This document shows positions 346-54,158 of a stretch of DNA of 64,000 nucleotides, in pieces (position 1 is the stretch's first letter; every line of letters begins with the position of its first letter). Made by a program: the position numbers and the translations under genes. The stretch is from NCBI GenBank assembly GCA_013180625.2, contig SNVD02011092.1, positions 372,001 through 436,000 on the forward strand, in the 5' to 3' direction. Source of the DNA: Boswellia sacra. Its lineage: Eukaryota; Streptophyta; Magnoliopsida; Sapindales; Burseraceae. The notes below the pieces were generated by a model. The model searched no databases, was not told where the DNA came from, and saw nothing but the letters and a program-made list of their open reading frames with translations.

Positions 346-885
346 ACGGATAATGATAACATTCTTCACCAGCCCTTCACAAATGCTTCCCTTCACTCCC
401 TTAAAATGCTCTGGTAAAAATCTATAAAGCACGATTTAATAGACTTAGGATGTTTATGATTAAGGAAATGCCTGTGGACATCCGCTGGTTAATCGAAGCT
501 AAGATTAGATTAGCTGGCGAATCTGCAATTGATTTTATAGGATACATGCCTGGTCTAGGAAAAAGCACTCTTGCCAGAAAGTGACATGCTAAAAGGTTAT
601 AAGTCTGTTATAGGTGTGCTAGATGGAATTGCATCCAAAATTACCGTTCTTTGGGATTTGTGTGTAAAAATAGGGAAGATAAGCTATAGTTCATCAAGGA
701 TGGACTGAGTAAAGAGTCATTAGATAATATCGTACTGACTCTTGAGAATCATTCCTGTGGATTAGTGCAAAGAGTCATTAGACTATGTTGAACATCAACA
801 ACATAGTCTAGGGAATCTGACTTTAAACAGCCTTGTTTGCTAGTTTGTAAGAAAACTGGATGGGAAGCAAATCCTCGACTCATAG
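346..885 (+). pseudogene. ORF-X of element A (basic, cysteine-cluster accessory protein), degenerate
   Basis: This aligns with the ORF-X copies at 11590-12132 and 36188-36736. Recognisable stretches are MPVDIRWLIEAK, GKSTLARK, VCYRCARWNC and SLGF..NREDKL. The codon matching the start in B' reads ACG here. There is at least one frameshift near the start and several in-frame stops, including one inside the basic KRRA stretch and one after REDKL. The second half of the cysteine cluster has lost a cysteine (NYRS in place of NQxC). It cannot be functional. The family is discussed under the element C copy. Confidence 0.6.
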
Positions 886-1774
886 AAGGCGTTTAAGCCG
901 TTACTGGACGTAAAACCAAAGGAATATGTGAGCCATAATCACAACTATTTGTACATATTTGTTTTGTTTTTCAAGACTTTCATGTCAGTGTGATTTATTA
1001 TTGTTCTCATTGATTTTATCGTTCTTTTGATTTATTTTTCATACTGTTGTATTGTTTTTTCCTTTTATTTTATTAATAATTTTTTTCTTTCTTCTTTCTT
1101 TTCTCTCATTGTTTGTCATGTTATTATTGTTATTTAGTCGTTTTTTACTGTGTATCTTTTACTCTTGATAAATCACGTAGCTTTCCATAAGGTTAAAGTG
1201 GGAGATAAGTATGGAAAAGCAAACGCGTGCATCGATTAACCTCCCACCAAAAGCAGACTTCTTTATTTTAAATATGAGTAGGAGTAATAATTATGCATCG
1301 ACCAACCCCTATTGACAATTGTCCCCACGTTTTTCAAATGAAGGCTTCGATTATTCCCACCAAAAGTTAGATGCACATGTTTTAAGTATAGGAAAGCGGA
1401 TCGATTTATTTGTATGGTTGAGTCTTAATTGTTTATCAATCAACACCCACCTAATTTTCCACCTTCATCTGTCAATTTCAATAACTTTCATCTCTTTTTA
1501 GCTCCATGAATGCAACACCTCATGTACTAAAATAGCATACATAGGATAGGTGAGTGCGAAAAAAAAAAAAAAGAGAATGGAGAGAACACCTGTTCGAAGA
1601 TTTCATAAGATCTGTGTGTTTTGAGATCTAGCCTAGAAGAGATGGTGAGTTTGTGAGAGCAACAGATCACTTAGGTAGGGTATTAGCTGTTAAGAACATA
1701 AATGTCATATACGAGGGGGTTTAGCAATGGGTTAATGGGGTGTGCATTTACAACTGCAATCTTAAGAGGGAGTC

Positions 1775-3141
1775 TGATGAATACTTAAATATGTATGCTT
1801 AATGAGAGCTTAATTCATCATATTGTATTAATAGTGTCATTAAATTCCTCAATTTAATCATATTTGTAGTATTTACATCCTTGGAATTAACTTTCTCTTA
1901 ATTTCGGTTTTGATGTAGGTTAGGTAAAATGGGCATAACGTTCTATTTATAGATCAGAATGGTGCAAATCTTAATGTTTTGAAAAGCTGATTCAATTATC
2001 TACAAGATTTCATTTCAAAATATCATCAATTTCGGGCTCTTAGTGGTCCAAACTTGGGCTGGAAGTGAACCCATCTATAGTCTCGGCCCAGCTTGACCAG
2101 GCCTCAGTATTTGGACAGTATCTCTCAAAATACGTATCCAAATTGTAGAAATCAATATGTTCTAGAAAGCTGAAAGAAATGTCTACAACGTTTATGAAGT
2201 CATGTGATTAAAATGCTCAATATTTCAATGTCAAAATCGGTGGTCAAAGAGGTGCACCTAATGATCCCAATGGTCAAAGTTAGTTCACCTAACATTTGAC
2301 AACTATTCCTTTATAATTTGACAAGTTTGCCCCTGAATGTATCTATAAATAGAGGTGCCTTGTGACCCATGAGGGCATCGTGGCCTTTGCTGGGATCTTG
2401 TATTGTGTTTCTATCTTGTTTTAATGTTATTAATGAATTTTCTTTTTCTTGCATTTTGTGTTCTTTCTCTTATAATGTCTTGCTAATTTCTCTCTTGCTA
2501 AGGCGAAAGGGTGAAACCCTTAATATGAGATATGAGAGTAAGGATTCTCTAACCCTTAATATTTGCTTAATAATCATAATCTTATGTTGTTTGTATGATT
2601 TATATTTATTTTCTTAATCAATCTTGACACCACCCGTAAAGTGGAGGTCTTGATCCATGTTAGACAATCCTTGGCACATCAAATGCTTGGGTCCTTTCTG
2701 GATGTCGTATGGTTCTTTCTTACTGACATGAATCTAGTTAGGAACCTTGATTTGTTGTAGACATATAGAGATTGGCACATGGGATGCTTGAACCCATTTA
2801 CGAGAAGTGGTATAAATATTGGTAACGAAGCAATATAACTCATATAACTAAAATGGGTTGTTTATCCTTATTCGAAATATCAAGGGCGGATCCTCTAACC
2901 TTATCTCTCATTATCATTGTGTTAATTTCTCTTGTGTTATTCTCATTTATTGTCTAAGAACTTGTTCTTTAGTCATATTGTTGATATTATCTTGCCATCC
3001 CTTTGAATCATCTACATCATATTTGCTTACTTATAATTTGTAGCGCTAAAACCTCCTTCCTCGTGGATCGACCCCGGTCTTATCGGGTTTATTACTTCGA
3101 CACTCCTATACTTGGGAGACAATCCTTTTTCGGATGTGTCA
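1775..3141 (+). mobile_element. Solo LTR of the element B/C family inserted in the LOG pseudogene
   Basis: The 1367-bp sequence begins TGATGAATAC and ends GGATGTGTCA. It is the same LTR as at 19956-21347, 29228-30569 and 39044-40388. It is flanked by GAGTC (1770-1774) and GAGCC (3142-3146), a 5-bp target duplication with one later change. The LOG reading frame resumes immediately after it. No internal sequence of this family is attached, so it is a solo LTR left by LTR-LTR recombination. Confidence 0.9.
2344..2353 (+). promoter_or_regulatory. TATA box of the solo LTR
   Basis: TATAAATAGA occurs at the same place in the other LTRs of the family: 39615 in LTR2 of element C is identical, 29798 in LTR1 reads TATAAATTGA, and the copy near 20526 has decayed to TACAAATAGA. 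This is the likely promoter that starts the retrotransposon transcript. Confidence 0.55.
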
Positions 3142-3592
3142 GAGCCAAGTATTAGGTATTATTCCCACTCCCTTAGTTGTACAAAATATATATGGGAAAA
3201 CAGTTGGGGAGGAACTTAGAGTCACATCCATGCACGAACGCGTAGCTCGGTTGCTTGCTTATCCTGATGCGTTCATAGCTTTACTAGGTGGTTTTGGCAC
3301 ACTAGAAGACATTTTTCAGATAGCCTTGTGGTCCTAACTTAATATCCACCAAAAACCTATCGGGTTTTTAAATGTAAAAGTTTTCTTTAATAGTATCTTA
3401 TTTTTTTTAGATAAAGCTATGGAACAGAACTTCATTTCACAGTCGACACATAAAATCCTAGTCACTGCTTCAACTGCCAAGGATCTAATCAATCAATTAC
3501 AGGCATTCATTTTTGAACTTGATCCAGCAGCGACCCAAATAAACTGGCTCAATGGAAGTGATTAGAGGCGTGAACTGGATTTGACACTCTAA

Positions 3593-11589: not shown

Positions 11590-12132
11590 ATGGATAATGA
11601 AAACATTCTTTCAGCCCTTCAAAAACGCTTTCCATCACTCTCTCAAAATGCTTTGGTAAACATCTATAAAGCATGATTTAACAGACTTAGGATGTTGATG
11701 ATTAAGAAAATGCCTGTGGACATCCGCTGGTTAATCGAAGCTAAGGTTAGATTAGCTGGTGAATCTGAAATTGACTTTACAGCATACATGCCTAGTCTAG
11801 GAAAAAGCACTCTCGCCAAAAAGCGACGTGCTAAAAGGTTACAAGTCTGTTATAGGTGTGCTAGATGGAATTGTAACCAAAAATGTCATTCTTTAGGATT
11901 TGTGTCTAAAAATAGGGAAGATAAGTTATAGTTCATCAAAGATGGACTGAGTAAAGAATCGTTAGATAATATCTTACTGACTATTGAGAATCATTCTTGT
12001 GGATTAGTGCAAAGAGAACTAATGAAATTGTGGACACAATTCCGAATGGAATATCAACAATATAGTCCAGTAAATCTAACTCTAAATGATCCAGTTTGCC
12101 AGTTTGCAAGAAAACTGGATGGAAAGATGTGA
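11590..12132 (+). pseudogene. ORF-X of element B' (basic, cysteine-cluster accessory protein)
   Basis: A 180-codon frame starts at ATG and is broken by a TGA before the conserved RLRMLM segment and by a TAG after NREDKL. The central motif is complete: GKSTLAKKRRAKRL, then C-x2-C (VCYRCAR), N-C, K-C-H and SLGFVSKNREDK. The C-terminal part reads FIKDGLSKESLDNIL and LWTQFRMEYQQY. It is the best-preserved copy across the cysteine cluster. It lies 424 bp upstream of the LOG-like gene. Confidence 0.65.
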
Positions 12133-12556: not shown

Positions 12557-13207
12557 ATAGAGAAAACACCAATTCGATGATCCTGCAATATATGCATATT
12601 TTGCGGCTCGCAATTTGGTAAAAATGGAGAGTTTACAACAGCAGCTCTTGATCTTGGTAGGACATTAGCTGAGAGGGGTATTCATTTGATTTATGGCGGG
12701 GGTAGTCTTGGGTTAATGGGGTGTGTGTCAATAGCTACATCCCTAGGAGGGAGCAAAGTTCTCGGCATTATCCCTAAACCATTAGCTGTACGAGATATCG
12801 TAGGTAACACAATCGGGGAAGAGTTACAGGTCTCTAGCATGCATGAGCGTATTGCACATATGGTTGTTAAGTCCGATGCATTTATAGCTTTGCCTGGTGG
12901 CTATGGTACATTAGAGGAGATATTTCAAATCACCCCTTGGGCACAGCTAAACATCCATCGGAAACCCATTGGTTTGTTAAATATCAATAATTTTTTTGAT
13001 GGTTTGTTGTCCTTTATTGATCAAGCTGTAGAAAAAAATTTCATCTCACCTTCAGCGAGGCAAATCCTGGTTACAGCTTCAACTGCAGGCGAGTTAATTG
13101 ACAAACTATAAGAATTTGTCTATTCGCCTGATCCAATAATGGCTCAGGTAGATTGGTTTGGAGAAGGCAATAAAAGGCGTAGACTAGATTTAACACTCCA
13201 TCTGTAA
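12557..13207 (+). pseudogene. LOG-like gene captured by element B', nearly complete
   Basis: This copy has an uninterrupted frame from about 12590 (CIFCGSQFGKNGE) to KL at 13111 and then one stop before the tail (EFVYSPDP, RRRLDLTLHL). Seen in order: the FCGS loop, the YGGG-LGLMG nucleotide-binding turn, PKPLAVRDI, SMHERIAHM, the signature PGGYGTLEE and TPWAQLNIHRKPIGLLN. These are LOG-family landmarks (lysine-decarboxylase-like fold, cytokinin phosphoribohydrolase). The family's conserved MHxRK is MHERI here, so the lysine is missing. The position matching the start in A and C is ATA, and a TGA lies just before CIFCGS. It has no introns. Length without the tail is close to a normal LOG of about 215 residues. 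Confidence 0.8.
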
Positions 13208-23341: not shown

Positions 23342-23460
23342 TCAAATTTTATTTGTTTATGCCATATTTTCATTTTCATTTTTATTTTTACCATTTCTAG
23401 TTTGTTTTTATTTTATGTGCTTTTATTTTAGTGTGTGTTTGTCTTTTATTTTCCGGTCAA

Positions 23461-23525
23461 GTGACGGATACAGTACTCCGTGACTTTTAAAGTCGGTTTT
23501 TCAGTTCCCTAAAAACTGTTGCTCA
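23461..23525 (+). promoter_or_regulatory. Conserved hairpin cluster of element B
   Basis: The motif ACTCCGTGACTTTTAAAGTC followed by GGTTTTTCAGTTCCC and TAAAAACTGTT is almost identical to 36083-36147 in element C. It can form GACTTT/AAAGTC and CAGTT/AACTG stems. It lies just after the gag/pol coding region. Confidence 0.65.
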
Positions 23526-24320
23526 CCTTGCATTCATTTTCTTTTATTTTCTCTCATTTTCTTCATAGTCTTGGGAATCTGACTCAAAACGACCATGTTT
23601 GCCAGTTTATAAGAAAACTGGATGGGAAGCATATCCTCAACTCATAGAAGTGTTTAAGCCGTTTCTGGACGTAAAACCAGAGGAAGATGTGAGCCACAGT
23701 CACAACTACCTATACGCATGCATGTGTGCCATCAATTTTAAATTTCTTGTCTTTTATTTTATTTGTAGCATTTTATTCTATGAGTCTTTCAGGTTGTCTC
23801 TCTTGAATAATAGAAGCTTCAGATAATGTCTCCTATACTTTATCTCTCTACATTTAAACATTGAGGACAATGTTTCATTTGGTTAGGGGGGAAGCATAGT
23901 AGACATAAGTGTGTCTTTAATTGCCTTTTTCTTGCAAAAAAAAAAAAAAAAAAAAAAAACCAGTTAGTTATTAGATTCAGAGTGCGGTGTAAGGAGTTCA
24001 AATCCTCTTGAGACGCATTCTAGGTCAGGAATGGTAGAGTAAAGAGGGCCAGTTTGAACTCTTGAAACACACTCTAACCAATTTGTCGTTTTATTTTTGC
24101 ATTTTTTAAGACTTATTTTAACTAACTTGATATTATTTAGTTTTGATTTTTGAATTTTATAACAACGAGGTCTTATTCATTTCACTTTGAATTATTCAAA
24201 TCTATGAACTCTCACAGCCTTATCACTTAATAAACAGTGTGCTTATATACTCATTAAGTAAGTATTCATAAACCTTTCTTCACACACATACATACCTTAA
24301 TGCATGATTGTGGGTGGCGA
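23526..24320 (+). other. 3' region of element B, lacking LOG
   Basis: The end of the ORF-X region is present (23578-23700, matching 36660-36790), and then sequence equivalent to 37730 onward of element C follows, so the LOG-like gene has been removed or was never present. A poly-A run lies at 23936-23960. The CTTGAGACGCATTC...AATGGTAGAG motif is at about 24010-24045. Confidence 0.6.
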
Positions 24321-24329
24321 AATGAAATG

Positions 24330-25129
24330 TTGAAGACTTATTTGTGTTATTTTCCTTTACATTATGAACTAAATCCCTTTTTCTAGTGTTAGGATGTAGC
24401 CAAGTTTGATACTCTATTATTTCAATTCAAAATATTGATGTTTATTCGATTTCTTGTTGAGTAAGTTATTCAAGTGTTAGGATGTAGCCAAGTTTGATAC
24501 TCTATTATTTCAATTCAAAATATTGATGTTTATTCAATTTCTTGTTGAGTAAGTTATTCAAGTGTTTAATGCTTACGATGGTCTAGCCAATTATTGCATG
24601 ATCTGAGATATAAATTAGAAATTTCATATTAGTTCTTGAGCAATTTACCATAAACTTACGTGAGACGTAAATATAATTGTGATTTGTGCAACCCTATATG
24701 ATTTTTTGTGCTTAAAGGATAATTATAGGTTGTAGATGAGGCAAGAATTCTATTCTCACTATAGTTATAACTTGTTATTGCTTGAAAAAGGATAACAAAT
24801 ACCTTAGAGAAATTGGTTGGCAACAAGGTTGGTATAACATTAATTAAATTGGATTGGATAATAAAGTGGACAACTTAGATTAAACCTGATACCCTATAGT
24901 TTAATACCATTCATTTTATCTTAATTTAATTTGAAATCCTATTTTTTTGCTTACTAGTTAAATTCAGTTAGTTATTTAGTTAATTACTTTAAATTCAATA
25001 ACTCTCATCAATTATTTAAATAAAATCATAGTTAAATTAAGTGTAGTAGTTAATAACCAATCCTTGTGGGAATGACAACTCACTCAACATATATTACTTG
25101 TTCAATTTCATATACTTGTGGTTCTTGCA
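24330..25129 (+). mobile_element. Truncated LTR related to the element A family
   Basis: From about 24560 the sequence follows the second half of the 5177-6337 LTR in order (GGCCAATTATTG-type block, TGTGGGA-type block near the end) and ends near TTCTTGCA at 25129. It contains an 88-bp tandem duplication at 24385-24560. Its left edge against element B is not a clean LTR start. Confidence 0.5.
24385..24560 (+). repeat. 88-bp tandem duplication
   Basis: Two copies (24385-24472 and 24473-24560) differ at a single base. They begin AGTGTTAGGATGTAGCC. Confidence 0.95.
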
Positions 25130-29227: not shown

Positions 29228-30569
29228 TGATGAACACTTAAATATGTATATTTAATAAGAGTTTAGTTCATCATATTGCATTAATAGTGTCATTAAATTC
29301 CTCAACTTAAGCATATTTGTAGTCTTTGCATCTTTGGAATTAATTTCCTCTTAATTTTGGTTTTGTTACAGGTTCGGTAAAATAGGCATAACTCTCTATT
29401 TATAGAACAGAATGGTGCAAATCTTAATGTTTTGGAAAGCTAATTAATTATCTATAAGATTACATTTCACAAGCATCATCAAATTCGGGCTCTTAGTGGA
29501 CCAAAAATTGGGCTTGAAGTGAACCCATCTGTAGATTCAGCCTAGCTTGACCATGCCTCAATATTTTGACCGTATCTCTCAAAATACGTATCCAAATCAT
29601 ATGAATAAAGATGTTCTAGAAAGCTGAGAGAAATATCTATGACTTTCATGAAGACATGTGATTCAAATGCTCAATAATTCAATGTTAAAATCGGCGGTCA
29701 AAGTGGTGCACCTAATTATCCCAATTGTTAAAGTTAGTTCACCTAATATTTAACAACTATTCCTTTGTAATTTGACAAGTTTGACCCTGAATGTATCTAT
29801 AAATTGAAGTGCCTTGTGACCCATTAAGGCATCTTGGCCTTTGATCCCTTGTTATTGTGTTTTTCTCTCTTGTATTAATGAATTTCCTTTTTCTTATGAT
29901 TTGTATTATTTCTCTTATAATGTCTTTCTAATTTCTCTCTTACTAAGGTGAAAGGGTGAAACCTTTGATATGAGAGTAAGGATTCTCTAACCCTTTGATA
30001 TGTGCTTAATTGTCAAAATATTGTGTTGTTTATTTTATATGATTTATATTTATTTTCTTAATCAATCTTTACACCACTCGGAAAGTGGAGGTCTTGATCC
30101 ATTGTCGACAATCCTTGGCACATCAAATGCTTGGATGCTTTCTAGATGTCGTATGGTTCTTCCTTACCGACACGAATCTAGTTAGAAACCTTGATTTGTT
30201 GTAGACATATGATGATTGACACATTGGATGCTTGAACCCATTTACAAGAAGTGGTATAAATATTGGTAACGAAGCAAATATAATCCATATAACTAAAATG
30301 GGTTGTTTATCCTTATTTGAATTATCAAGGGCGGATCCCCTAACCTTAGCTATCATTATTATTGTGTTAATTTCTTTTACTTGCATATTTTAATTATTCT
30401 CATCTATTGTTGATATTATCTTGTCATATCTTTGAATCATCATGTCGTATTTGCTTAGCTTATAATTTGTAAAGCTAAAATCCCCTTCCTCGTGGATCGA
30501 CCTCGATCTCACCGGGTTTATTACTTCGACACTCCTATACTTGGGAAACAATCCTGTTCGAATGTGTCA
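29228..30569 (+). repeat. 5' LTR of element C
   Basis: It begins TGATGAACAC, ends GAATGTGTCA and is 1342 bp long. It pairs with 39044-40388. The TATA box region is TATAAATTGA at 29798. Confidence 0.9.
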
Positions 30570-30575: not shown

Positions 30576-30593
30576 TGGCGCCGTTGCCAGGGA
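30576..30593 (+). promoter_or_regulatory. Primer binding site, tRNA-Asp type, element C
   Basis: TGGCGCCGTTGCCAGGGA matches the complement of plant tRNA-Asp with one mismatch, six bases after the LTR. Confidence 0.85.
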
Positions 30594-30695
30594 AGGTAAA
30601 ATTTGGCATGCAAAATTGTAAGTATTCTCTTCTCTCATTTTAGATCTTAATTTTTTACTTTGTTGTGTGTTCATCTTTTCTTCTCTCTTTCTTGC

Positions 30696-31796
30696 ATGAA
30701 AATTTGGTCACGAATATCTAGTGGTAGACTTGTTAGAAAAACATCATCTTCCTTAGAAAACATGGCTGACAATCTAGTGGAAAGGTTCACGAATGAAGGG
30801 GACAACCGTTCCCAACAAAATGATCAAAACCAACGAAGAACCCTTAGATATTACATGAAGCCGGTAAGGACTAGTGCACCATCTTGTGTAGTTTCTCCTC
30901 CAGATTCAATCCATTTCAAGCCAAGTTTTGTTCGACTTCTACCCACCTTTCATGGCCTTGATGTGGAAAACCCATATTCGCACTTAAAACTCTTTGAAGA
31001 GGTATGTAATTCCTACACTGACCCAAATTGTAGCATAAACACCATTAGATTAGAGCTTTTTCCATTTTCTTTAAAAGATAAAGCTAGAACATGGGTACAA
31101 AATTTGACGTCGAATTCCATCAGTTCATGGGATGAGATGAAACAACAATTTTTGAAAAAAAATTTTCCTACCCATAGAACAAATTCTCTTAAAAGACAAA
31201 TTTCCGATTTCTCTCAAAACCAAGGGGAAACCCTTTACCAATATTGGGATAGGTATAAGGAACTACTTAATACCTATCCTCACCATGGTTTTGAAATTTG
31301 GAGAATAGTTGCACACTTCTATGAAGGGTTAACACCTCAAGATGGGCAACTAGTAGAATTAATGTGTAATAGAGAATTTAAAGAAAAAGACCCTGAGGAA
31401 GCACTTGACTACATAGATTCCTTGGCAGAAAAGGCACAAAATTGGGATACTGCTGGCACCTATAAGGTACCAAGCAAGGCCCCGACCTCGATATCCAATA
31501 GAGGCATTTACAACCTTAGGGATGACCATGACCTTCAAGCCAAATATGCATCCCTAGCTAGAAAAGTCGAGGCTTTAGAGATGAAAAAGAATGGTCAATT
31601 GAATTCTATTCAAGAAAATGTCTGTAACATTTGTAATGATGATGACCATTTTACTGATGATTGCCCAACTTTGCCTGCCTTTAGGGAATGTCTCCATGAA
31701 GAAGCCAATGCCTTGAACACTTTCAAAAGGCCAAATCACAATCCATACTCACACACCTTCAATCCCGGTTGGAGAAATCATCCAAATTTTAGTTGA
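30696..31796 (+). pseudogene. Gag of element C
   Basis: The frame starts at ATG (30696; a second ATG at 30762 begins MADNLVERF). The capsid core shows FHGLDVENPYSHLKLFEEV, FPFSLKDKARTWVQNL, QFLKKNFPTHRTNSLKRQI and WDRYKELLNTYPHHG. A zinc knuckle CNICNDDDHFTDDC (C-x2-C-x6-H-x4-C, wider than the usual x4) follows near residue 325. A TGA stop at 31794-31796 and a short indel near 31830 separate it from pol, which in the intact element would be the same polyprotein. Gag packages the element RNA in virus-like particles. Confidence 0.85.
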
Positions 31797-31909: not shown

Positions 31910-34405
31910 TTGCATTCATTCATTACAAAGCAAGAGATTTTCAATAGTCAAACTGCTCAAACATTAGCAAATTTGTCAGACACTCTTGCAAAATTTGTAT
32001 CTATATTTAGCATCCAAGAGAAAGGAAAATTTCCTTCCCAAACATTGCAAAACCCCAAAGATCAATCTAACTCAAATCCAGGGAGTTCAAGTAACCATTA
32101 TTTTGACCATGCCAAATCAGTCATGACCCTTCGCAATGGTAAGGTTGTTGAAAAACACATTCCTGACCCTTATGAAAAAGAAGAAGTATCGATCTTTAAA
32201 GGGAAAGAAGAGGTTGTCAACCCAACACCTAGCAAAGAAGAAACCAAATCCTCATCTGTGCCTCCATTTCCTCAAGTATTAGCTACACAAAAGAAGCCAA
32301 CTCACAATTCTGAAATCTTTGAAATTTTTAAACAGGTAAAGGTCAACATTCCCTTGCTTAATGTGATCAAACAGGTACCTTCTTATGCAAAATTTTTGAA
32401 AGACTTGTGCACTGTGAAAAGGAAATTGAATGTGAAAAAGAATGCCTTTCTAGCCGAGCAAGTAAGTACTATTCTTCAAAGCAATAATACAGTGAAATAT
32501 AAGGATCCAGGTTGTCCTACAATTTCATGTGTTATTAGAGACCATAAAATTGAACAAGCTTTACTTGATATTGGTGCTAGTATGAATTTGCTTCCATACT
32601 CGGTTTTTCAAAAACTCAATCTAGGTGAGTTAAAACCGACTTCTGTGACTCTTTTGCTTGCTGATAGATTAATTAAAGTACCAAGAGGATTAGTAGAAGA
32701 TATATTAGTTCAAGTCGATAAATTCATTTACCCAGTGGATTTTATCGTCTTGGACACGCAACTAGTAGAAGTAAGCAATTCAATTCCTGTTATTTTAGGG
32801 CGTCCATTTCTAGCTACCTCTAATGCTTTGATTAATTGCAGGAATGGAGTCATGAAGCTATCATTTGGGAACATGACATTGGAACTTAATGTTTTCAATA
32901 TGTGCAAACAACCAAATGAAGAAGAAGATGAAATTGATGAGGCCAATGTAATTGAATCTATTGTGGAAGATCACATCCAAAAAGGGAGTTCTTCTAACCC
33001 TTTGAAAACTTGTCTAGTGAATTCATTAGAATCAAGTATGGAACTAGAGTCTGATCTTTCTTATTTATCTTCTTTATTGGATTGTGCACAGGTGATGGAA
33101 AAAGGCTCAAAATCAAGATTCGAAGAATTGGGGCAAATGAATGAAAGCAAGGAAGAGGAATCTCCCAAGTTAAAACTAAAGCCCTTACTTGAAGGACTGA
33201 AATATGCATATCTTGGGGAGAATCAGACATATCCGGTTGTAATTTCTTCATACCTCACATGCGAGCAACAAGGTAATTTGATAGAAGTGCTTAAAAGGCA
33301 TAAAAATGCAATTGGGTGGACTTTAAAAGATATAAAAGGCATTAACCCTTTAATTTGCACACATAGAATACATTTAGAGAAAAATGCCAAAACATCTCAA
33401 CAACCTCAAAAGAGATTAAATCCACACATGAAAGAGGTCATTAGGGCTAAAGTTCTCAAACTTCTTGATGTGAGAATTATCTATCCTATTTTTGATAGTA
33501 AGTGGGTAAGTCCTACACAAGTAGTACTAAAAAAATTTGGCATTACAGTTGTTAAAAATGAAAAGGGGGAATCATTGCCAACTCGTGTCTCATCTAGTTG
33601 GAGGATGTGCATTGATTATAGAAAATTAAATGCTGTCACTAGAAAAAACCATTTTCCCTTACCTTTCCTTGACCAACTTCTTGAAAGAGTAGCAGGACAC
33701 CCCTACTACTGCTTTCTTGATGGATACTCAGGCTATTATCAAATTCCCACTGCACTCGAAGACCAAGAAAATACCACATTCACGTGCCCCTTCGACACTT
33801 TTGCATTTAGGAGAATGCCTTTTGGACTTTGTAATGCCCCAGCCACTTTTCAAAGATGCATGTTAAGCATTTTCAATGATATGCTTGAGCATTGTTTAGA
33901 AGTTTTTATGGATGATTTAACTGTCTTTGGAAACTCTTTTGACAATTGTCTTGAAAACTTAGAAAAAGTCCTAAAAAGGTGTGTAGAAAAAGGTCTTATT
34001 TTGAATTGGAAAAAATGTCATTATATGGTCACTTCAGGAATTGTCTTAGGTCATGTAGTGTCTTCTAAAGGAATTGAAGTGGATAAAGCAAAAGTGGAAT
34101 TAATTTCCCATTTGCCTCCACCAAAAACAGTTAAAGAGGTTCGTTCATTCTTAGGGCATGCTGGATTTTATAGGAGGTTCATAAGAAATTTCAGTGCTAT
34201 ATCTAAACCTCTTTGTAACCTCTTAATAAAAGATACTTCCTTTGAATGGACTCAAGAATGTCAAAATGCCTTTGATACACTAATTGGACTTTTAACAACT
34301 GCTCCAATTATGCAATCTCCTGATTGGTCCTTGCCTTTTGAATTGATGTGTGATGCAAGTGACTATGCCATTGGTGCTGTCTTAGGACAAAAGAAAAGAA
34401 GGTAA
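31910..34405 (+). pseudogene. Pol of element C: protease, reverse transcriptase, start of RNase H
   Basis: The 831-codon frame contains a protease (LLDIGASMNLLPYSVF near residue 220, then VILGRPFLATSNALIN), a linker, and a Ty3/Gypsy RT (WRMCIDYRKLNAVTRK, FLDGYSGYYQI, MPFGLCNAPATFQR, VFMDDLTVFG with the catalytic DD). RNase H begins with [15 protein letters not shown]. The protease motif is D-I-G-A-S, as in Athila-type elements. A one-base insertion in an A-rich stretch at about 34395 ends the frame; RNase H continues in another frame. The RT order and FMDD motif place it in the Athila/Tat group. Confidence 0.9.
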
Positions 34406-36063
34406 GCCTTACGTAATATACTATACAAGTAGGACTTTAAATGATGCACAAATGAATTACGCAACAACTGAAAAAGAACTACTTGCAGTAGTATTTGCAT
34501 TGGACAAATTTCGATCGTATTTAATTGGTTCTCTAACAATTGTTTACACTGACCATGCAGCTATGAGATATTTAATGTCTAAACAGGATGAAAAACATAG
34601 ATTGATATGGTGGATCTTATTGCTCTAAGAATTCAACATCACAATAAAGGATAAGAGAGGAGCCGAAAATGTCGTTGCAGATCATCTTTCAAGACTAACG
34701 ACAGAGACATTAATTGAAACTTCACCTATCAATGATTCTTTTCCTGATGAATTATTATTTTCTGTTGCTACTGTACCTTGGTTTGCTAACATTGTAAATT
34801 TCCTTGCAACAAGAAAAATGCCACCTCATTGGAATGCTCAAGACAAAAGGAAATTTTTAAACGAGGTGAAAAATTTTTATTGGGATGACACATATCTGTT
34901 CAAATATTGTCCAAACCAAATAATAAGAAGATGCATACCTGACAATAAGGTAAGTAGTGCCATTAACTTTTGTCATTCTGAAGGATGTAGATGACATTTT
35001 TCATCTAGAAAAACAGCTGCTAAAATCTTACAATGTTGATTTTATTGGCCCACCTTATTTAAAGATGCACATGCATTTTGCAAAACGTGTGAAATTTGTC
35101 AAAAACTGGGATCCATTTCAAAAAGAAACATGATGCCTTTGAATCCCGTTCTTGTTGTTGAAATCTTTGACTGTTGGGGTATTGATTTTATGGGACCCTT
35201 TCCACCGTCATTTGGTTTTCTGTACATTCTTGTTGTAGTAGACTATGTTTCAAAATGGGTCGAGGCAATTCCATGTCGAAATAATGATCACAAAACAGTT
35301 GTCAAATTTTTGAAAGAAAATATCTTGAGTAGATTTGGAATTCCTCGAGCCATTATTAGTGATGGGGGTACACATTTTTGTAACAAACCATTCGAAACTT
35401 TAATGAAGAAATATGGAATAACCCATAAAATTTCTACACCTTATCACCCCGCAAACAAGTGGACAAGTTGAATTAGCTAATAGGGAGATCAAACAGATCT
35501 TAGAAAAAACGGTTAACCCAAATCGTAAAGATTGGTCTTTAAGACTTACTGATGCACTTTGGGCTTACCGAACTGCTTTTAAAATATCATTGGGAATGTC
35601 TCCTTATAGACTAGTTTATGGGAAACATTGTCGCTTGCCTGTGGAAATTGAGCATAAAGCTTATTAGGCAATTAAAACAATCAACACAAATTTGAATGAT
35701 GCTTGCAAGTTACGTAAACTCCAACTGAGTGAACTTGAAGAAATCAGGAATGAGGCTTATGAAAATTCTAAAATCTGCAAAGAAAAAATGAAGGTTTTTC
35801 ATGACAAATCCATTGTTAGAAAATCTTTTGAACCTTCCCAAAAAGTTCTTTTGTATGATTCAAGATTGCATTTGTTTCCTGGTAAACTTAGGTCTCGTTG
35901 GACTGGGCCTTCCATTGTTAAAAATGTTTTCCCTCATCGAGCAGTTGAAATTGAGAACCCAAAGAATGGTAATGTGTTTAAAGTTAATGGACAACGGTTA
36001 AAACCATTCTTTCAAAATTTTGATCAAAATGAAGAGTCCATTGCTTTAATCGATCCTTTTTAA
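34406..36063 (+). pseudogene. RNase H end and integrase of element C
   Basis: After the frameshift, RNase H continues ([49 protein letters not shown]). The integrase has a zinc-binding region near 34970-35110 broken by a stop and an indel, then a core open from 35130: [14 protein letters not shown] (first D), [13 protein letters not shown] (second D), and [14 protein letters not shown] after a frameshift near 35455 (the E). The C-terminal part (35692-36063) is open: [19 protein letters not shown] to [17 protein letters not shown]. No chromodomain is present. Confidence 0.85.
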
Positions 36064-36082
36064 GGATGGATTTTTTCCAATC

Positions 36083-36147
36083 AAGTGGCGGATACGGTAC
36101 TCCGTGACTTTTAAAGTCGGTTTTTCAGTTCCCTAAAAACTGTTTCT
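36083..36147 (+). promoter_or_regulatory. Conserved hairpin cluster between integrase and ORF-X
   Basis: CGGATACGGTACTCCG, GACTTTTAAAGTC and CAGTTCCCTAAAAACTG can form three consecutive small stems. The same 60-base stretch is kept in element B (23461-23525), where everything before it has been deleted to gag. A role in RNA structure or expression of the downstream genes is an inference. Confidence 0.6.
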
Positions 36148-36187
36148 CACATTGCATTCATTTTCTTTTCTTTTCTCGCATTTTTAC

Positions 36188-36736
36188 ATGGACACCATTC
36201 TCTCAAATCTGCGCAAACATTTTTCCTCCCTTCCTCAAAATTATTTGCTTAAAATTTACAAAGCTCGTGCTGAAAGACTAAGGATATTGATGTGTAAGGG
36301 TATGCCTGTTGAAGTAAGATGGTTAATTAAAGCCAAGGTTCGATTTTCTTATGAATTTTCAGATAATCTTTTTTCTCACATGCCAGGTATGGGAAAAAGC
36401 TCTTACGCCAAAAAGCGAAGAGTGCAAAAGTTACAAGTTTGTCCCAAATGTGCAAGATAGACTTGTAACCAGCGTTGCCGCTCCTTGGGATATTTGTCTA
36501 ATAATCGAGAGGATAAAATACAGTTCATCAAGAATGGACTGAGTAAGGAGTCTTTGGATGATATCTGAGTGACTCTTGAGACGCATTCTCGTGGACTTGT
36601 GCAACATGAAATTTTTAACTTATGGACACAATTCCGAGATGAGCAGGAACGCTATAGTCTTGGGAATCTGACTCAAAGCGACCCTGTTTGCCAGTTTATA
36701 AGAAAACTGGATGGGAAGCATATCCCCAACTCATAG
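36188..36736 (+). pseudogene. ORF-X of element C: basic cysteine-cluster protein resembling viral nucleic-acid-binding proteins
   Basis: One frame of 182 codons from ATG, with internal stops at codon 91 (TAG) and codon 127 (TGA). Visible parts: a helical N-terminus (MDTILSNLRKHFSSLPQNY), MPVEVRWLIKAKVRF, then GKSSYAKKRRVQKLQVC, C-x2-C, TCNQRC, SLGYLSNNREDKIQFI and KNGLSKESLDDI. A basic KKRR patch directly before a C-x2-C/C-x3-C cluster, followed by a short FI..G segment, is the layout of the cysteine-rich nucleic-acid-binding proteins of carlaviruses (Pfam Carla_C4); similarity is judged by eye. It is not a retroviral CCHC knuckle and not an Athila env. A and B' carry the same ORF before LOG. 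An alternative downstream frame stays open in part, so the exact C-terminus is uncertain. Confidence 0.6.
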
Positions 36737-37052
36737 AAGGTGTTTAAGCCGTTTCTGGACGTAAAACCAGAGGAAGATGTGAGCCACAGTCACAACTACC
36801 TTTACATATGCATGCGTGCCATCATTTTTGAATTTTAATACCTCATAGCTGTCATTTTTGAATTTGTATCTTTTGTTTGACTTATGGTGTCTTATTTCAT
36901 CATCTTTTGAATTTTTATGCATTATTGTCAACTTTTTTCAACAAACAACCGAGCTACCTAGTTAGATATCATCATTAGCATACCTTTTTGCACTCCATAA
37001 ATACCACATGTATTGTTCTCTTCTTCACACATAGTTAGAGAGTTGCATAGAC

Positions 37053-37702
37053 ATGGAGGGAACTTCAAAATGTCGAATCCAAAGGATATGTATATTCTGC
37101 GGATCTTGATCGGGTAAAAGTGAGGAGCTTGTAGAAGTAGCAAATTATCTTGGTAGGCTACTGGCTGAAAGAAAGATTCATGTGGTTTATGGGAAGGTAG
37201 CCTCAGGTTAATGGGTTGTGTGTCAACAGCTGCACATGTAGGAGGTAGTCAAGTTTTAGGAGTGATTCCTAAAGCTTTGGCTATAGAAAGCGTCGTTGGA
37301 AAAACGGTTGGGATAGAGTTATAGGTCTTCTCTATGTATGAACGCATGGCACATATGCTCATCAATTTAGATGCCTTTATTGCTTTACCAGGTGGCTTTG
37401 GTACTCTTGAATAAATTTTTCAAATCGCCTCTTGGGCCCAACTGAATCTCCATAAAAAACCCATAGGTTTGTTGAATGTCAAAAATTTCTTTGATCCTTT
37501 GATAAGTTTTGTTGATGCAGCTGTGGAACAAAATTTTATCCCTCATTCGGCGAGAAAGATCCTTGTTTCTGCCACTTCTACTGGCGAGTTGCTTGATAAA
37601 TTACAAGAAGTTGAGTATGAACCTGACCCAGCTAGTACTCAAATTAATTGGGCAGGAGGGCAAAACAAAAAGTGCAAATTGGATCTGAATCTCCGTTTGT
37701 AA
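37053..37702 (+). pseudogene. LOG-like cytokinin-activating gene captured by element C
   Basis: It starts at ATG (MEGTSKCRIQRICIFCGS) and ends with a tail DLNLRL and TAA, about 216 codons, the normal LOG length. LOG enzymes hydrolyse cytokinin nucleotide to free cytokinin and ribose 5-phosphate. Landmarks: FCGS, LMGCVSTAAHVGGSQVLG, PKALAIESVVGKTVG, MYERMAHM, PGGFGTLE, ASWAQLNLHKKPIGLLNV and HSARKILVSATSTGELLDKL. The family MHxRK reads MYERM. Breaks: a TGA after FCGS, a frameshift in the YGGG loop near 37193, TAG near 37322 and TAA near 37411. There are no introns. It lies about 315 bp after ORF-X on the transcript strand. Confidence 0.85.
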
Positions 37703-39028: not shown

Positions 39029-39043
39029 GCTGGTTGGGGGGTG
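39029..39043 (+). promoter_or_regulatory. Polypurine tract of element C
   Basis: GCTGGTTGGGGGGTG immediately precedes the right LTR and would prime plus-strand DNA synthesis. A near-identical copy (GCTAGTTGGGGGGTG) sits outside the left LTR at 29213-29227. Confidence 0.8.
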
Positions 39044-40388
39044 TGATGAACACTTAAATATGTATGTTTAATAAGAGTTTAGTTTATCATATTGCATTAA
39101 TAGTGTCATTAAATTTCTCAACTTAAGCATATTTGTAGTCTTTGCATCTTTAGAATTAACTTCCTTTTAATTTTGGTTTTGTTATAGGTTTGGTAAAATG
39201 GGCATAACTCTCTATTTATAGATTAGAATGGTGCAAATCTTAATGATTTAGAAAGATAATTAAGTTATCTACAAGATTACATTTCACAAGCATCATCAAA
39301 TTCGGGCTCTTAGTGGACCAAAAATTGGGCTTGAAGTGAACCCATCTGTAGATTCGGCCCAGCTTGACCATGCCTCAGTATTTTGATTGTATCTCTCAAA
39401 ATACGTATCTAAATTGTATGAATCAAGATGTTATAGAAAGCTGAGAGAAATATCTACGACTTTCATGAAGACATGTGATTCAAATGCTCAATAATTCAAT
39501 GTCAAAATTGGTGGTCAAAGTTGTACACCTAATGATCCCAATTGTCAAAGTTAGTTCACCTAATATTTGACAACTATTCCTTTGTAATTTGACAAGTTTG
39601 CCCCTAAATGTATCTATAAATAGAAGTTCCTTATGACCCATTAAGGCATCTTGGCCTTTGCTGGGATCTCTTGTTATTGTGTTTTTCTCTCTTGTATTAA
39701 TGAATTTCCTTTTTCTTATAATTTGTGTTCTTTCTCTTATAATGTCTTTCTAATTTCTCTCTTGCTAAGGTGAAAGGGTGAAACCTTTGATATGAGAGTG
39801 AGGATTCTCTAACCCTTTGATATGTGCTTAATTGTCATAATATTGTGTTGTTTATTTTATATGATTTATATTTATTTTCTTAATCAATCTTGACACCACT
39901 CGGAAAGTGGAGGTCTTGATCCATTGTCGACAATCTTTGGCACATCAAATGCTTGGATCCCTTCTAGATGTCGTATGGTTCTTCCTTACCGGCATGAATC
40001 TAGTTAGAAACCTTGATTTTTTGTAGACATATGATGATTGGCACATTGGATGCTTGAATCCATTTATAAGTAGTATAAATATTGGTAACGAAGCAAATAT
40101 AATTCATATAACTAAAATAGGTTGTTTATCCTTATTTGAATTATCAAGGGCGGATCCCCTAACCTTAGCTATCATTATTATTGTGTTAATTTCTTTTACT
40201 TGTGTATTTTAATTATTCTCATCTACTATTGATATTATCTTGTCATATCTTTGAATCATCATATCATACTTGCTTAGCTTATAATTTGTAGCGCTAAAAT
40301 CCCCTTTCTCGTGGATCGACCTCGGTCTCACCGAGTTTATTACTTCGACACTCCTATACTTGGGAGATAATCCTTTCCGGATGTGTCA
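39044..40388 (+). repeat. 3' LTR of element C
   Basis: It begins TGATGAACAC, ends CGGATGTGTCA and is 1345 bp long. The TATA box TATAAATAGA lies at 39615-39624. It is followed by the target duplication GTTAA. Confidence 0.9.
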
Positions 40389-40393: not shown

Positions 40394-43300
40394 CCAGCAG
40401 AACCTTGCTTCAGTTGTATCGAATATTTGTCCTTCTTGGAAGTTCTTATCCAATGTCACTAAGTAAACTGCATGTAGAGTTTTGGTGTATTGAGATCCTA
40501 CTTTGTACAGTTTGAGTGATTTGCAGCTTTCTCCACAGTGGATCGCTTGTCAGGCTACCAGATTATTAGATGGAGTTTCTTTTGGTTTGATTTTTGTTTA
40601 TGGTTCTAACGATCCATGTGTTCGTCGAAAGTTGTAGGACTTTTTCAGAGCTCAGTCCATGGGTTTTAGTGACTTACCTTGGCTGGCATTGGGTGATTTC
40701 AATGCGATTATATGCTCTTCGGATAGAGTTGGTGGGGATCAGGCTTGGCATGGTTACATAGATGAGTTTGGTCAGTGTGTTCATGATGTAATGTTGATCA
40801 GGGTACTAGCTTTTGGGCTTCGGTATACTTGGCATAATGGGCAGCAGGGAGAGGGTATTAGTCTTAGGACTCTTGATTGGAGTTTTGGTAGCGTTTCATG
40901 GTTCTTGACTTGGCCAAGCACAACTTCTGAGGTTCTACCACGGGATGTTTCTGATCACAGTGCTATGGTCATCAGATTTGGAGATCAACGTAGGTAGACC
41001 TCCAGTCCTTTTAAATTTTTGAACTTTTTGGCTAACCGAGAGGATTTCTTAGAATTTTTTCAGAGAGAATGGTCTATGCCTGCGGACGAGCATCCTATGT
41101 TTCGAGTCACACAGAAATTGGGGTTGTTGAAACGTGAGTTTAAAACTTTGCATGCCAAGGATTCTAGCCACATCTCTAATAGGGTTATTGAGGCTAGTGC
41201 TCAGTGGGCTGCGGCTCAGGCTGCTCTAGATGAGAGCCCTTGCTTCCTAGATTGTATTTTGGTTGAGAGGGATTTTGCTAAGCAGTATTCCCAGTTATGT
41301 AGGGATGAGGAGGCTTTCTTTCGGCAAAGGTCAATGATCCAATGGCTCTCTTTGGGGGATCATAATACCAAGTTCTTTTACAAGTCTCTGATCCATAGAC
41401 AGGTTCGAAATCGGATTCATCAGCTTGAGGATCAGGATGGCACCATCGTTACAAATCGAGGTGACCTAGGTCATTTGGCTATAAGGTACTTTCAGAAATT
41501 GCTTACAGCTCCTTCTCCACCTTCTATTATAGATGCTTCTCGGTTTTTCTTTGGTAGAATTTATGAGGAGATGCTGCCTTCTTTGGTATGCCCTATTACT
41601 GATGATGAGATCAGGTCAGCTTTATTCTCGATTCCTGATGATAAAGCTCCAGAACCGGATGGGTACACCTCTCTTTTCTTTAAGAGGGCTTGGGACATTA
41701 TTAGTGTGGAGTTTAAGGCTATTGTGTGCTACTTCTTCGTGACTTGCCAGATGCCAAAATGTGTTAATGCCACTAGAATTGCCTTGGTCCCCAAGGTTGA
41801 GCCTCCGAGGACTATGAGTGACTTTCGACCAATCTCTTGTTGTAATGTACTCTACAAATGCATCTCTAAAGTGATTGTGAATTGGTTCAAAGCAATCTTA
41901 CTTGATGTTATTGAGAGTTCACAGTCTGCTTTTGTTCCAGGTCAGAGGATCTCTGATGCCATTCTTTTGATCAAGAGCTAATGCATAATTACCATCTTGG
42001 GTACACACCTCCCCGGTATGCTTTAAAGGTGGATATTCGGAAAGCTTTTGATACTGTTAGCTGGGATTTCATCCTTAGGGTTAAGGATGATCGGTATTCT
42101 AGAGTGTATGGTTCGCTGGATTGCGACATGCACGTCTTCTGCACATTTCTCAGTTGCTTTAAATGGAGAACTTCATGGTTTCTTTCCTACCTCCAAAGGT
42201 GTTCGATAGGGAGATCCGTTATCACCATACCGTTTCGTGTTGGCCACGGAGGGTTTGAGTGGTATTCTTTGGAAGGCTTCTCAGCCACCTGGTTTTCAAT
42301 ATCATTGGAGATGCCAACAGATTTCTCTTACTCATCTTTGTTTTGTAGATGATCTGATGGTTTTTTTGTAGGGCAGATGTGGGCTCTGTTAGGGTGGTTC
42401 GTGCTACTTTGCAAGAGTTTCTGGGCTCTGTTAAGGTGGTTCGTGCTGCTTTGCAAGAGTTTGCAAAGCTCTCTGGTTTAGTTACGAATCCGGCCAAGAG
42501 TCATGTCTTCTTTTTCGGAGTCAATGATGAGGACAGAATAGTGTTACAGATCATCTTGGGTTTTCAGGTGGGGAGTCTGCCGGTTAGATATTTGGGGGTG
42601 CCTCTGATTAGTACCAGATTGCGCCTTTCAGATTATGCTCCTTTGATAGAACGAATTCTATCGAGGGTCAGGTTATGGACTTCTGTTGTGCTGACTTATG
42701 CTGGCCGTCTCCAGTTGATTAGGTCTATACTATTTTCCATTCAGGTATATTGGTCTTCTATGTTCATATTACTGGCAACAGTGGTATTGAAGATTGAGGG
42801 TATTTTGGCTGCTTTCCTCTGGAAAAGGACCTCTTTGTCTCGTTCTAGGGTCAAAGTAGCTTGGGATTCGATTTGCTATCTGTTGAAAGAAGGGGGATTG
42901 CGAATTAAGCAAGTGAAGGAGTCGAATCATGCTGCTATTCTAAAGCATATTTGGAGGCTTCTTTCTGACAAGTCCTCCACTTGTTCTTCTTGGGTTCATA
43001 AAGTGCTCATTCGGGGTCGCTCGTTTTGGCAAGTTCAGGTTACTTCTAGAGCCTACTGGTCTTAGAGGAAGATTTTGCAAAGTCAGGATTAGTGTAGGGG
43101 TAATTTGTCTCATGTATTGGAGACGAACGTGATACCTTACTTTGGCAGGATTACTGGTTACCATCAGGGGCGCCTTTATGATTTGTTTTCTTTCAAGACT
43201 CTCTCTTCCACAGGTCTTCCCTCAGATGCAAAGGTCTCAACTGTTATTCAGGATGGGGATTGGGCTTTTCCTGATGGTGGATCGGTCCTTAGACGGATTT

Positions 43301-44202
43301 GGGACTCTATCAGCATCCGGCCTATGATAGAGATTCCTGACCATATTATTTGGAAGGGCCACACCTCTGGTGTTTTCTCCATTGCCTCAGCTTGGGAATT
43401 ATTACGAAGCAGGAGATTGGCAAACTCATTTCACCATCTTCTGTGGTTCCCTAGCCATGTTCCTAGACACTCATTTATTCTTTAGCTTGCGTCATTGCAT
43501 TGCCTTCGTACTATGGACCGACTACGACGTCATGGCTTGTTATCCTCTTCGGTTTGTGTTCTCTGTGCTTCAGCAAATGAGACTCACGAGCATCTTTTCT
43601 TTAGCTATCTTTTCTCGTCTTCTGTATGGGGGGATATTTCAGCTAAGACTCTCATTGTTTGGCCATCTTCTAGCTGGCTCTCTCTACTTCAATGGGCTTC
43701 TCTTCATCTTCAGAGCAAGAAGAATTTTGGGCATATCCTTGCACGGTTGGTCTTTTCTGCTACAATTTATTTTCTATGGTATGAGAGGAACAATCTTGCG
43801 CATCAACACCGTCATCGGACTCGTCGTCAGGTGATTGATGAGATTTTTGCCTTGGTTCGCTCTCACCTTCTAACCTTAGAGGCCAATTATGCGATCACTC
43901 CTCAGCTTTGTGCCATATGGAGCCTTCATCGTTAGTTTTGTTTCTTGGATTTTGTTTTGTTTGGGCAATTACGCCCCTTTGTTTTGTTATTTCATTGATG
44001 TTAGTTTCTTTGTGGTTGGTTCATGCCTAAGTTTTATTTGGAGCCTTTTGCTCTATGTTTTGGTTGTTTGTTTAGAGCCTTTGGGCTTTATTATTTCCTT
44101 TTGGACTTGTGAGTACTAGGTACTCTTATTGGGGTATGCCCCTTGTATCTTGTACAATATTTTTCCTTTTAATGTGAAATAGTAATTTTCCCAAAAAAAA
44201 AA
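40394..44202 (+). pseudogene. L1-type LINE, 5'-incomplete, with endonuclease, RT and zf-RVT regions
   Basis: The endonuclease end is at about 40640-40990 (LALGDFNAIICSSDRVGG, DVSDHSAMVI). RT follows from 41019: WLSLGDHNTKFFY, LVPKVEPPRTMSDFRPISCC, SQSAFVPGQRISDAIL, LKVDIRKAFDTVSWDF and an F-V-D-D active site at about 42340. Downstream is VRYLGVPLISTRL, a WKRTSLSR block and a zf-RVT-like region (43370-43935, CVLCASANETHEHLFF). Several frameshifts and stops break it. An A-run at 44193-44202 is the poly(A) tail. A 42-bp in-frame tandem duplication (42381-42464) adds 14 codons after the active site. The 5' part meets the target site of element C. Confidence 0.85.
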
Positions 44203-53451: not shown

Positions 53452-53766
53452 TAAAATTCTTTTGTTCAAATTCCAAAGATAATAACACCTTTTTAATGTT
53501 TAATTATAACCTTCTAAGCGTCTCTTCCAAATAATTTAATATTATACAATCTATAACTATAAATGTATATTTATAACATGAAAAGCCTTGTGCCAGCGCT
53601 AACACTATATTTATATTAGTTAATAATTCCTTAGAAAGCCTAAGACCAAAAAAAAAAAAAAATACACCCAAGGTGGACAATCTTGATTTTATGAGTTGCG
53701 AACTTATCTTGAAGAATAACGAAGTGAAAATGTTTTTTAAAAAAAATAATAATTTGAAGATAAAAA
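53452..53766 (-). repeat. Terminal redundancy of the pararetrovirus, left copy
   Basis: It matches 61175-61509 in direct orientation apart from a deletion of about 20 bp near 53462 and a few substitutions. It corresponds to the viral leader. Confidence 0.9.
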
Positions 53767-53967
53767 AAATTCTATTTCTAGGGTTCTAATATGTTGTTCA
53801 ATAAATTCTAATTCATCATGAACAAATTTTCTTTGATCTTCACTTAAATATTTATAATTATTAGGTTGTAAATATTCATAAAATTCTTTTCATTGAATCC
53901 TACGAACTCTAATTTGTTGCCTAATTAAATGTTTTAATGTAGGATATTTACCAATCTTATAAGTCAT
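53737..53967 (-). pseudogene. Short leader ORF starting inside the primer binding site
   Basis: A 76-codon frame begins at an ATG that is part of the tRNA-Met primer site and ends at TAA inside the terminal repeat. One TGA at codon 26 interrupts it. Its second half reads KYLSEDQRKFVHDELEF, a charged helical stretch. No homologue is recognised. Because it lies in the leader it would be a short ORF upstream of ORF1 on the pregenomic RNA, but conservation in coding form is unproved. Confidence 0.4.
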
Positions 53968-54152: not shown

Positions 54153-54158
54153 TTTATT
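54153..54158 (-). terminator. Poly(A) signal of the viral transcript
   Basis: AATAAA on the minus strand, about 80 bases downstream of the TATA box and upstream of the primer site, as expected for a terminally redundant pregenomic RNA. Confidence 0.6.

What the first reader, a model, noticed from the sequence alone, without database searches (positions are those of the whole stretch)
36064..37702. Retrotransposon with a two-gene accessory cassette: ORF-X plus a LOG cytokinin-activating gene
Element C carries, between integrase and the 3' LTR, an ORF-X and a full-length intron-less LOG-like gene in the sense direction. Two other copies (346-3592 and 11590-13207) have the same two genes in the same order. 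Plant retrotransposons are known to pick up host genes, but a shared cassette in three copies suggests it became part of the element. Release of active cytokinin could favour cell division or delay senescence, which might help a mobile element; that is inference.
Basis: partly seen in the sequence, partly recalled or inferred. Interest (0 to 1): 0.9.

Follow-up and report, generated by a model that had tools for sequence, protein, structure and literature searches.

The report
Plant jumping gene carrying hormone gene
A decayed plant retrotransposon family carries two extra genes, one resembling an RNA-virus nucleic-acid-binding protein and one copied from a plant hormone-activating enzyme, and both look as if selection kept them for a time; elements with the hormone gene were known, while the virus-like partner appears not to have been described.

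Summary
Three loci carry ORF-X then an intron-less LONELY GUY (LOG) gene: A 346-3592, B 11590-13207, C 36188-37702. Only C is shown inside an LTR element with gag, RT, RNase H and integrase; its primer-binding site looks Athila-type (recalled). No copy in the window is intact. ORF-X matches Pfam Viral_NABP (B, 27.3 bits, E 4.4e-6) and Carla_C4 (B 23.0, C 25.3 bits), the cysteine-rich silencing suppressor/transcription regulator family of flexiviruses; a control shows part of the Carla_C4 score is mere basic-plus-Cys composition, so homology is likely, not proven. Both genes stay alignable between B and C where the spacer does not; dN/dS is 0.29-0.38 (ORF-X) and 0.19-0.24 (LOG). The three LOGs group against two Arabidopsis LOGs (bootstrap 100) and end in LDL[TN]L. 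A and B are 87% identical in ORF-X but 64% in LOG, so the modules recombined. LOG-type domains in Gypsy elements are already reported (Citrus, Populus); the virus-like partner and the constrained pair are the new part. Copy number, host and intact copies could not be checked: genome search did not complete.

The parts
29228..30569 (+). LTR at the 5' side of element C (TGATG...TGTCA); preceded by a PPT-like tract and followed by a PBS, so it also looks like the 3' LTR of the upstream element D
   Evidence: 93.7% identical to 39044-40388
30576..30593 (+). primer-binding site TGGCGCCGTTGCCAGGGA, Athila/tRNA-Asp type (type recalled)
30660..31796 (+). gag
   Evidence: PF03732 5.1e-23
31910..34405 (+). 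reverse transcriptase and start of RNase H; protease only as a weak match below cut-off
   Evidence: PF00078 9.8e-29, PF17919 1.1e-14, PF13650 3.4e-4 (21.7 vs 24.3 bits)
34386..34625 (+). RNase H, rest
   Evidence: PF17917 1.5e-24
35040..35468 (+). integrase core
   Evidence: rve PF00665 2.7e-19, H2C2 2.8e-6
36188..36736 (+). ORF-X, copy C: ATG to TAG, 182 codons, two internal in-frame stops; basic motif + CX2CX4CX3C finger; Carla_C4/Viral_NABP-like
37053..37702 (+). LOG, copy C: ATG present, three in-frame stops, one frameshift near 37193, C-terminal LDLNLRL
39033..39043 (+). PPT-like tract GTTGGGGGGTG
39044..40388 (+). 3' LTR of element C
11590..12132 (+). ORF-X, copy B: ATG to TGA, 180 codons, two internal in-frame stops; its end is shortened by a small deletion relative to A and C (read by eye)
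   Evidence: PF05515 4.4e-6 on 11677-11928
12557..13207 (+). LOG, copy B: ATA at the start position, 176 open codons (12581-13108), then a stop and 31 codons ending LDLTLHL
346..885 (+). ORF-X, copy A (ACG at the start position, stops, indels; ends read by eye)
1577..3592 (+). LOG, copy A, split by a solo LTR
1775..3141 (+). solo LTR of the C/D family (85.5-86.3% identical) inserted in LOG copy A; flanks GAGTC/GAGCC
23449..24353 (+). element D: same 3' region without ORF-X core and without LOG

Best explanation
This is the 3' accessory module of a Ty3/gypsy retrotransposon family, probably Athila lineage, now decayed in this window. Gene 1 (ORF-X) encodes a small basic zinc-finger nucleic-acid-binding protein that looks like the cysteine-rich protein (CRP) of carla-type RNA viruses. 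Gene 2 is a spliced LOG mRNA captured by the element. Shown here: anatomy, order, family matches, uninterrupted LOG reading frame in B, purifying selection on both, recombination between them. Inferred: both came in at the RNA level by template switching during reverse transcription; ORF-X dampens small-RNA silencing and/or acts as a nuclear regulator pushing cells to grow; LOG releases active cytokinin. Together they would keep the cell dividing and poorly silenced while the element transposes.
For: LOG family, with MHER and PGGYGTLEE kept in B. ORF-X above the curated cut-offs of Viral_NABP in B (27.3 vs 23) and of Carla_C4 in B (23.0) and C (24.8, or 25.3 when trimmed to the ATG) vs 20.9. 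B and C align over ORF-X (71.5%) and LOG (71.2%), while their 429- and 316-nt spacers share only one 33-nt match. dN/dS 0.29-0.38 and 0.19-0.24, bootstrap upper bounds 0.67 or less. The three LOGs group against AtLOG3, AtLOG8 and a bacterial LOG, bootstrap 100; 14 residues are common to A, B and C and differ from both Arabidopsis proteins, of which 10 also differ from the bacterial one. Flexivirus CRPs: silencing suppressors, one also a transcription factor causing hyperplasia (passages of PMC12172455; abstract and opening of PMC7588395).
Against: No copy in the window is open and function is untested. Shuffles that keep Cys, Lys and Arg in place still match Carla_C4 in 2 of 10 (11.9 and 19.3 bits, below cut-off), so that match is partly composition. 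Neither half of the ORF-X B piece passes a cut-off alone, C is below the Viral_NABP cut-off (14.0-14.6 bits), and the A pieces match neither family. ORF-X finger spacing is shorter than in viral CRPs (recalled). Only two plant LOGs served for comparison, so separate captures from another host LOG clade are not excluded. LOG dS is near saturation. Codon-position bias is not significant for ORF-X A-B and A-C. A and B are not shown next to gag-pol.
Confidence: 0.55

Rival explanations
1. LOG was captured more than once, or is a passenger: host LOG messages are copied into elements by chance, and the low dN/dS mainly records selection in host genes before capture.
For: LOG A, B and C are about as far from each other as B is from AtLOG3 (54-66% vs 58%). 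LOG of A and B differ far more than their ORF-X (64% vs 87% identity).
Against: Same place and order in all three copies; bootstrap 100 grouping, shared residues and the same LDL[TN]L tail. ORF-X beside it also has dN/dS below 1.
Confidence: 0.25
2. ORF-X is an unrelated plant or element zinc-finger protein whose basic stretch plus close cysteines mimics the viral profiles (convergence).
For: Shuffles keeping Cys/Lys/Arg reach 19.3 bits for Carla_C4; halves of the B piece score below cut-off, and a weak unrelated zinc-binding family (DUF4637) also appears there; no PDB relative.
Against: B passes the cut-offs of both viral families and C that of one; Viral_NABP covers residues 12-83 of the B piece and was reported for 0 of 10 shuffles. 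The gag piece of the same element gave neither family at E up to 0.01.
Confidence: 0.35
3. The LOG product works not as an enzyme alone but as a targeted repressor: its C-terminal LDL[TN]L resembles the plant EAR repression motif (LxLxL, recalled) and could recruit co-repressors.
For: The tail is present in all three diverged copies, in A behind a stop.
Against: Host LOGs with such a tail may exist; not testable here. The catalytic motifs are kept as well, fully in B.
Confidence: 0.1

Closest known systems
Gypsy elements with a YgdH/LOG-like extra ORF (PMC9289625: Citrus sinensis, C. clementina, and without its filter Populus trichocarpa; it cites Steinbauerova et al. 2011, whose 'Athila-like, LOGL4' wording is recalled)
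   Same: LOG-type gene as an extra ORF in plant Ty3/gypsy elements
   Different: The section read does not mention a partner gene, a virus-like domain or selection on the extra ORF; the 2011 paper was not read
Phalaenopsis Gypsy elements with an AlkB RNA demethylase (PMC9289625)
   Same: Ty3/gypsy element that fixed an extra enzyme ORF, proposed to bear on host surveillance
   Different: Different enzyme; here a hormone-activating enzyme plus a zinc-finger protein
Carlavirus/allexivirus/mandarivirus cysteine-rich proteins (Pfam Carla_C4, Viral_NABP; CVB p12, SPCFV NaBP)
   Same: Basic motif before a cysteine finger; Pfam matches above cut-off; ORF-X 182 codons, mandarivirus CRPs 223 aa
   Different: Encoded in an LTR retrotransposon; shorter finger spacing (recalled); function untested
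Plant LONELY GUY enzymes (At2g37210 and At5g11950; LOG3 and LOG8 are recalled names)
   Same: 58% and 50% identity (B), conserved MHER and PGGxGTLEE motifs in B
   Different: No introns in the frame, separate group in a six-sequence tree, C-terminal LDL[TN]L tail

Membership tests
Ty3/gypsy LTR retrotransposon (element C) | LTR - PBS - gag - RT/RH - INT - PPT - LTR in this order | tested here: met
   protease match below cut-off
Athila lineage | TGGCGCCGTTGCC-type PBS and long 3' region with extra ORFs (criteria recalled) | tested here: inconclusive
   PBS and long 3' region present; no RT tree against reference lineages, and absence of a chromodomain was not specifically tested
LONELY GUY cytokinin riboside monophosphate phosphoribohydrolase | PF03641 domain with PGGxGTxxE motif and the Arg of MHxR | tested here: met
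   met in B; in A PGG reads LGG, in C MHER reads MYER and a stop falls in the motif
LONELY GUY cytokinin riboside monophosphate phosphoribohydrolase | phosphoribohydrolase activity on cytokinin nucleotides | not testable with these tools
   needs an assay; NCBIfam equivalog CtkRMPhLog is below its cut-off (112.1 vs 300 bits) while TIGR00730 passes (173.8 vs 96.35)
Flexivirus CRP / Viral_NABP / Carla_C4 | score above the Pfam gathering threshold | tested here: met
   PF05515 27.3 vs 23 (B), 14.0 (C, not met); PF01623 23.0 (B) and 24.8 (C) vs 20.9; C trimmed to its ATG 25.3; A pieces no match
Flexivirus CRP / Viral_NABP / Carla_C4 | match beyond basic + Cys composition | tested here: inconclusive
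   Viral_NABP 0 of 10 shuffles, Carla_C4 in 2 of 10 up to 19.3 bits; no half of the B piece passes alone
Flexivirus CRP / Viral_NABP / Carla_C4 | RNA silencing suppression or nuclear transcription activity | not testable with these tools

The most novel reading that the evidence does not exclude
A plant LTR retrotransposon lineage took up, at the RNA level, a silencing-suppressor/transcription-factor gene related to RNA-virus CRPs and a host cytokinin-activating gene, and kept them as exchangeable modules of a two-part host-manipulation kit: one part blunts silencing and reprogrammes growth, the other makes active cytokinin to hold cells in division.
Probability: 0.3. Interest if true: 0.88.

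Novelty: new variant of a known kind. Interest (0 to 1): 0.6.

Why it matters
Extra ORFs occur in many plant retrotransposons, and their function is mostly unknown. If ORF-X is a CRP relative, the family links RNA-virus counter-defence to retrotransposons and makes a sharp prediction: the element acts on both silencing and hormone-driven division. The ORF-X/LOG mosaic also gives a natural test of whether accessory genes are selected as separate modules.

Tried and rejected
Searches that gave nothing: viral contigs with the ORF-X C piece (81 pattern matches) and the LOG B piece (5) gave no relative confirmed by tblastn; genome contigs with the ORF-X B piece (112 pattern matches) gave none. These collections are microbial and viral, so this says little. 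PHROGs gave no ORF-X match. PDB gave only weak ORF-X matches (E 0.08 and 1.6). NCBIfam gave ORF-X C one match far below its cut-off.

Considered and rejected: (a) ORF-X and LOG as chance open frames: rejected by stop counts and family matches. (b) LOG as an ordinary host gene beside a retrotransposon: rejected for C because it lies between integrase and the 3' LTR and recurs in order in A and B. (c) D as a LOG-less ancestor: less likely, because D also has no match to the RT and integrase pieces of C and lacks the ORF-X core, and in the 3' region D is 88-95% identical to C while A and B are about 72%; but D and C are only 72.6% identical in gag/protease, so D too may be a mosaic. (d) Element age from the LTR pair: not given, because the LTR at 29228 seems shared by two elements.

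Papers: PMC9289625 outline, passages and its section on non-canonical domains; PMC7264820, PMC11728184 and PMC12172455 passages (PMC7264820 holds neither 'LOG' nor 'cytokinin'); PMC7588395 abstract and opening text; all others search listings only. Steinbauerova et al. 2011 and the CVB p12 Plant Cell paper were not read; ids tried and not held. That a CRP/Viral_NABP gene in a retrotransposon is not in print rests on the listings (titles and abstract starts, open-licence PMC only; listed full texts not read); it is no claim about other journals.

Full report
What is there. The window is plant DNA (judged from its gene content) rich in retroelements. Element C has LTRs at 29228-30569 and 39044-40388 (93.7% identical), a PBS TGGCGCCGTTGCCAGGGA and a PPT-like tract, gag and RT, RNase H and integrase. 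The protease match is below its cut-off. The order and the PBS (type recalled) fit the Athila lineage; no RT tree was made. The LTR at 29228 is preceded by a PPT-like tract and followed by a PBS, so two elements (D and C) seem to share it, and the LTR pair is not used for dating.

The cassette. In C, ORF-X (36188-36736) and LOG (37053-37702) follow integrase. B (11590-12132 and 12557-13207) and A (346-885 and 1577-3592) have the same pair. No copy is intact: ORF-X B and C each have two internal in-frame stops; ORF-X A has ACG at the start position, stops and indels; LOG C has three stops and a frameshift; LOG B has ATA at the start position, a stop before its open stretch and another near its end; LOG A is split by a solo LTR of the C/D family with flanks GAGTC/GAGCC. 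Stops are still far fewer than chance: ORF-X B 2 vs 13.5 expected, ORF-X C 2 vs 11.4, LOG B 2 vs 12.3 (each 0 of 1000 shuffles as low), later part of LOG C 2 vs 10.2 (1 of 1000). D, a relative of C, has no match to C's RT and integrase pieces and lacks the ORF-X core and LOG.

LOG. The B piece matches PF03641 (8.1e-38), TIGR00730 (173.8 bits) and At2g37210 (6.6e-64). It keeps MHER and PGGYGTLEE; A has LGG for PGG, and C has MYER and a stop in the motif. B runs through 176 codons without interruption; plant LOG genes have several introns (recalled), so it came through an mRNA. Over the core, B is 58% identical to At2g37210 and 66% to C. In a six-sequence tree A, B and C group together (bootstrap 100). 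At 15 alignment positions A, B and C agree against both Arabidopsis proteins; one is an alignment gap, and 4 of the other 14 equal the bacterial residue, so at most 10 are clearly derived. All three end in LDLTL or LDLNL, like an EAR motif (recalled); in A this lies behind a stop. Only two plant LOGs were available, so this does not prove a single capture.

ORF-X. The B piece 11677-11928 matches Viral_NABP PF05515 at 4.4e-6 (27.3 bits, cut-off 23) and Carla_C4 PF01623 at 8e-5 (23.0 bits, cut-off 20.9). The C piece matches Carla_C4 at 2.2e-5 (24.8 bits; 25.3 when trimmed to the ATG) but Viral_NABP only below cut-off (14.0, 14.6 bits). The A pieces, broken in the core, match neither; nor do the later ORF-X pieces of B and C. 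Control: ten shuffles that kept Cys, Lys and Arg in place gave Viral_NABP in 0 of 10, and Carla_C4 in 2 of 10 (11.9 and 19.3 bits, both below cut-off). The N-terminal half of the B piece matched nothing; the C-terminal part scored 17.5 bits for Viral_NABP and 17.2 for Carla_C4. In C, 26 residues around the basic motif and first cysteines give 24.6 bits for Carla_C4 on their own, that is nearly the whole score. So a CRP-like protein is the best name, with convergence as a live rival.

Selection. B and C align in ORF-X (71.5%) and LOG (71.2%), while their spacers share only one 33-nt match. Codon comparisons dropped stops and gapped codons: 14 (A-B), 18 (A-C) and 9 (B-C) of 181 codons for ORF-X; 11, 11 and 7 of 216 for LOG. 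Omega for ORF-X is 0.38 (A-B), 0.35 (A-C), 0.29 (B-C); for LOG 0.19, 0.19, 0.24. Upper bootstrap bounds are 0.67 or lower; replicates with saturated dS were entered as 0, which pulls the LOG bounds down. Codon-position bias is strong for LOG (p 5e-5 or less) and ORF-X B-C (p 5e-4), but not significant for ORF-X A-B (p 0.4) and A-C (p 0.08). LOG dS is near saturation (1.2-1.8), so LOG omega is rough.

Mosaic. ORF-X A-B identity is 86.6% (bootstrap 83.6-89.5), LOG A-B 63.9% (60.4-67.8). LOG or ORF-X was thus exchanged between element lineages, with the break probably in the spacer: the long A-B spacer match ends at 1210, a 29-nt match follows near 1281-1309, and LOG begins at 1577.

Mechanism. 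LOG releases active cytokinin bases from nucleotides (established knowledge). Flexivirus CRPs act as silencing suppressors, and CVB p12 also as a nuclear transcription factor causing hyperplasia (PMC12172455 passages; PMC7588395 abstract and opening). Inferred: the element used both to obtain dividing, weakly silenced cells. Nothing here tests this.

Prior work. PMC9289625 reports the YgdH/LOG domain in Gypsy consensuses of two Citrus species and, without its filter, Populus, in line with Steinbauerova et al. 2011 (not read; its attribution to Athila-like elements is recalled). Its section on extra domains names no Carla_C4 or NABP domain. The listings of searches show no paper whose title or abstract start places such a domain in a retrotransposon; those full texts were not read.

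Limits. 

Noticed in passing
53458-61519 (- strand): Endogenous caulimovirus-like element: movement protein (60268-61104), coat domain plus zinc knuckle (58123-59205), RNase H (55724-56128), with 320-bp direct repeats (96.6%) 7742 bp apart, as might be expected for slightly more than one turn of a circular genome. Described only.
   Followed up: partly
19956-40388: LTR-internal-LTR-internal-LTR arrangement: the LTR at 29228 has a PPT-like tract in front and a PBS behind and seems to serve both element D and element C; no matching target duplication at the outer ends. D and C are 72.6% identical in gag/protease but 88-95% in the 3' region, another sign of mosaicism.
   Followed up: partly
36980-37053: An ATAAATA stretch about 50 nt before the LOG start of copy C could be a TATA box of an internal promoter; not found in the A or B spacer by the same scan.
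   Followed up: no
41019-43485: Another degenerate reverse-transcriptase element on the + strand (RVT_1 just below cut-off; weak zf-RVT).
   Followed up: no
19082-19887: Gag-like fragments of a further gypsy element just upstream of the D LTR.
   Followed up: no
13112-13204, 37415-37699, 3563-3592: All three element LOGs end in LDLTL/LDLNL, an EAR-like LxLxL tail (name recalled); whether host LOGs have it could not be checked.
   Followed up: partly
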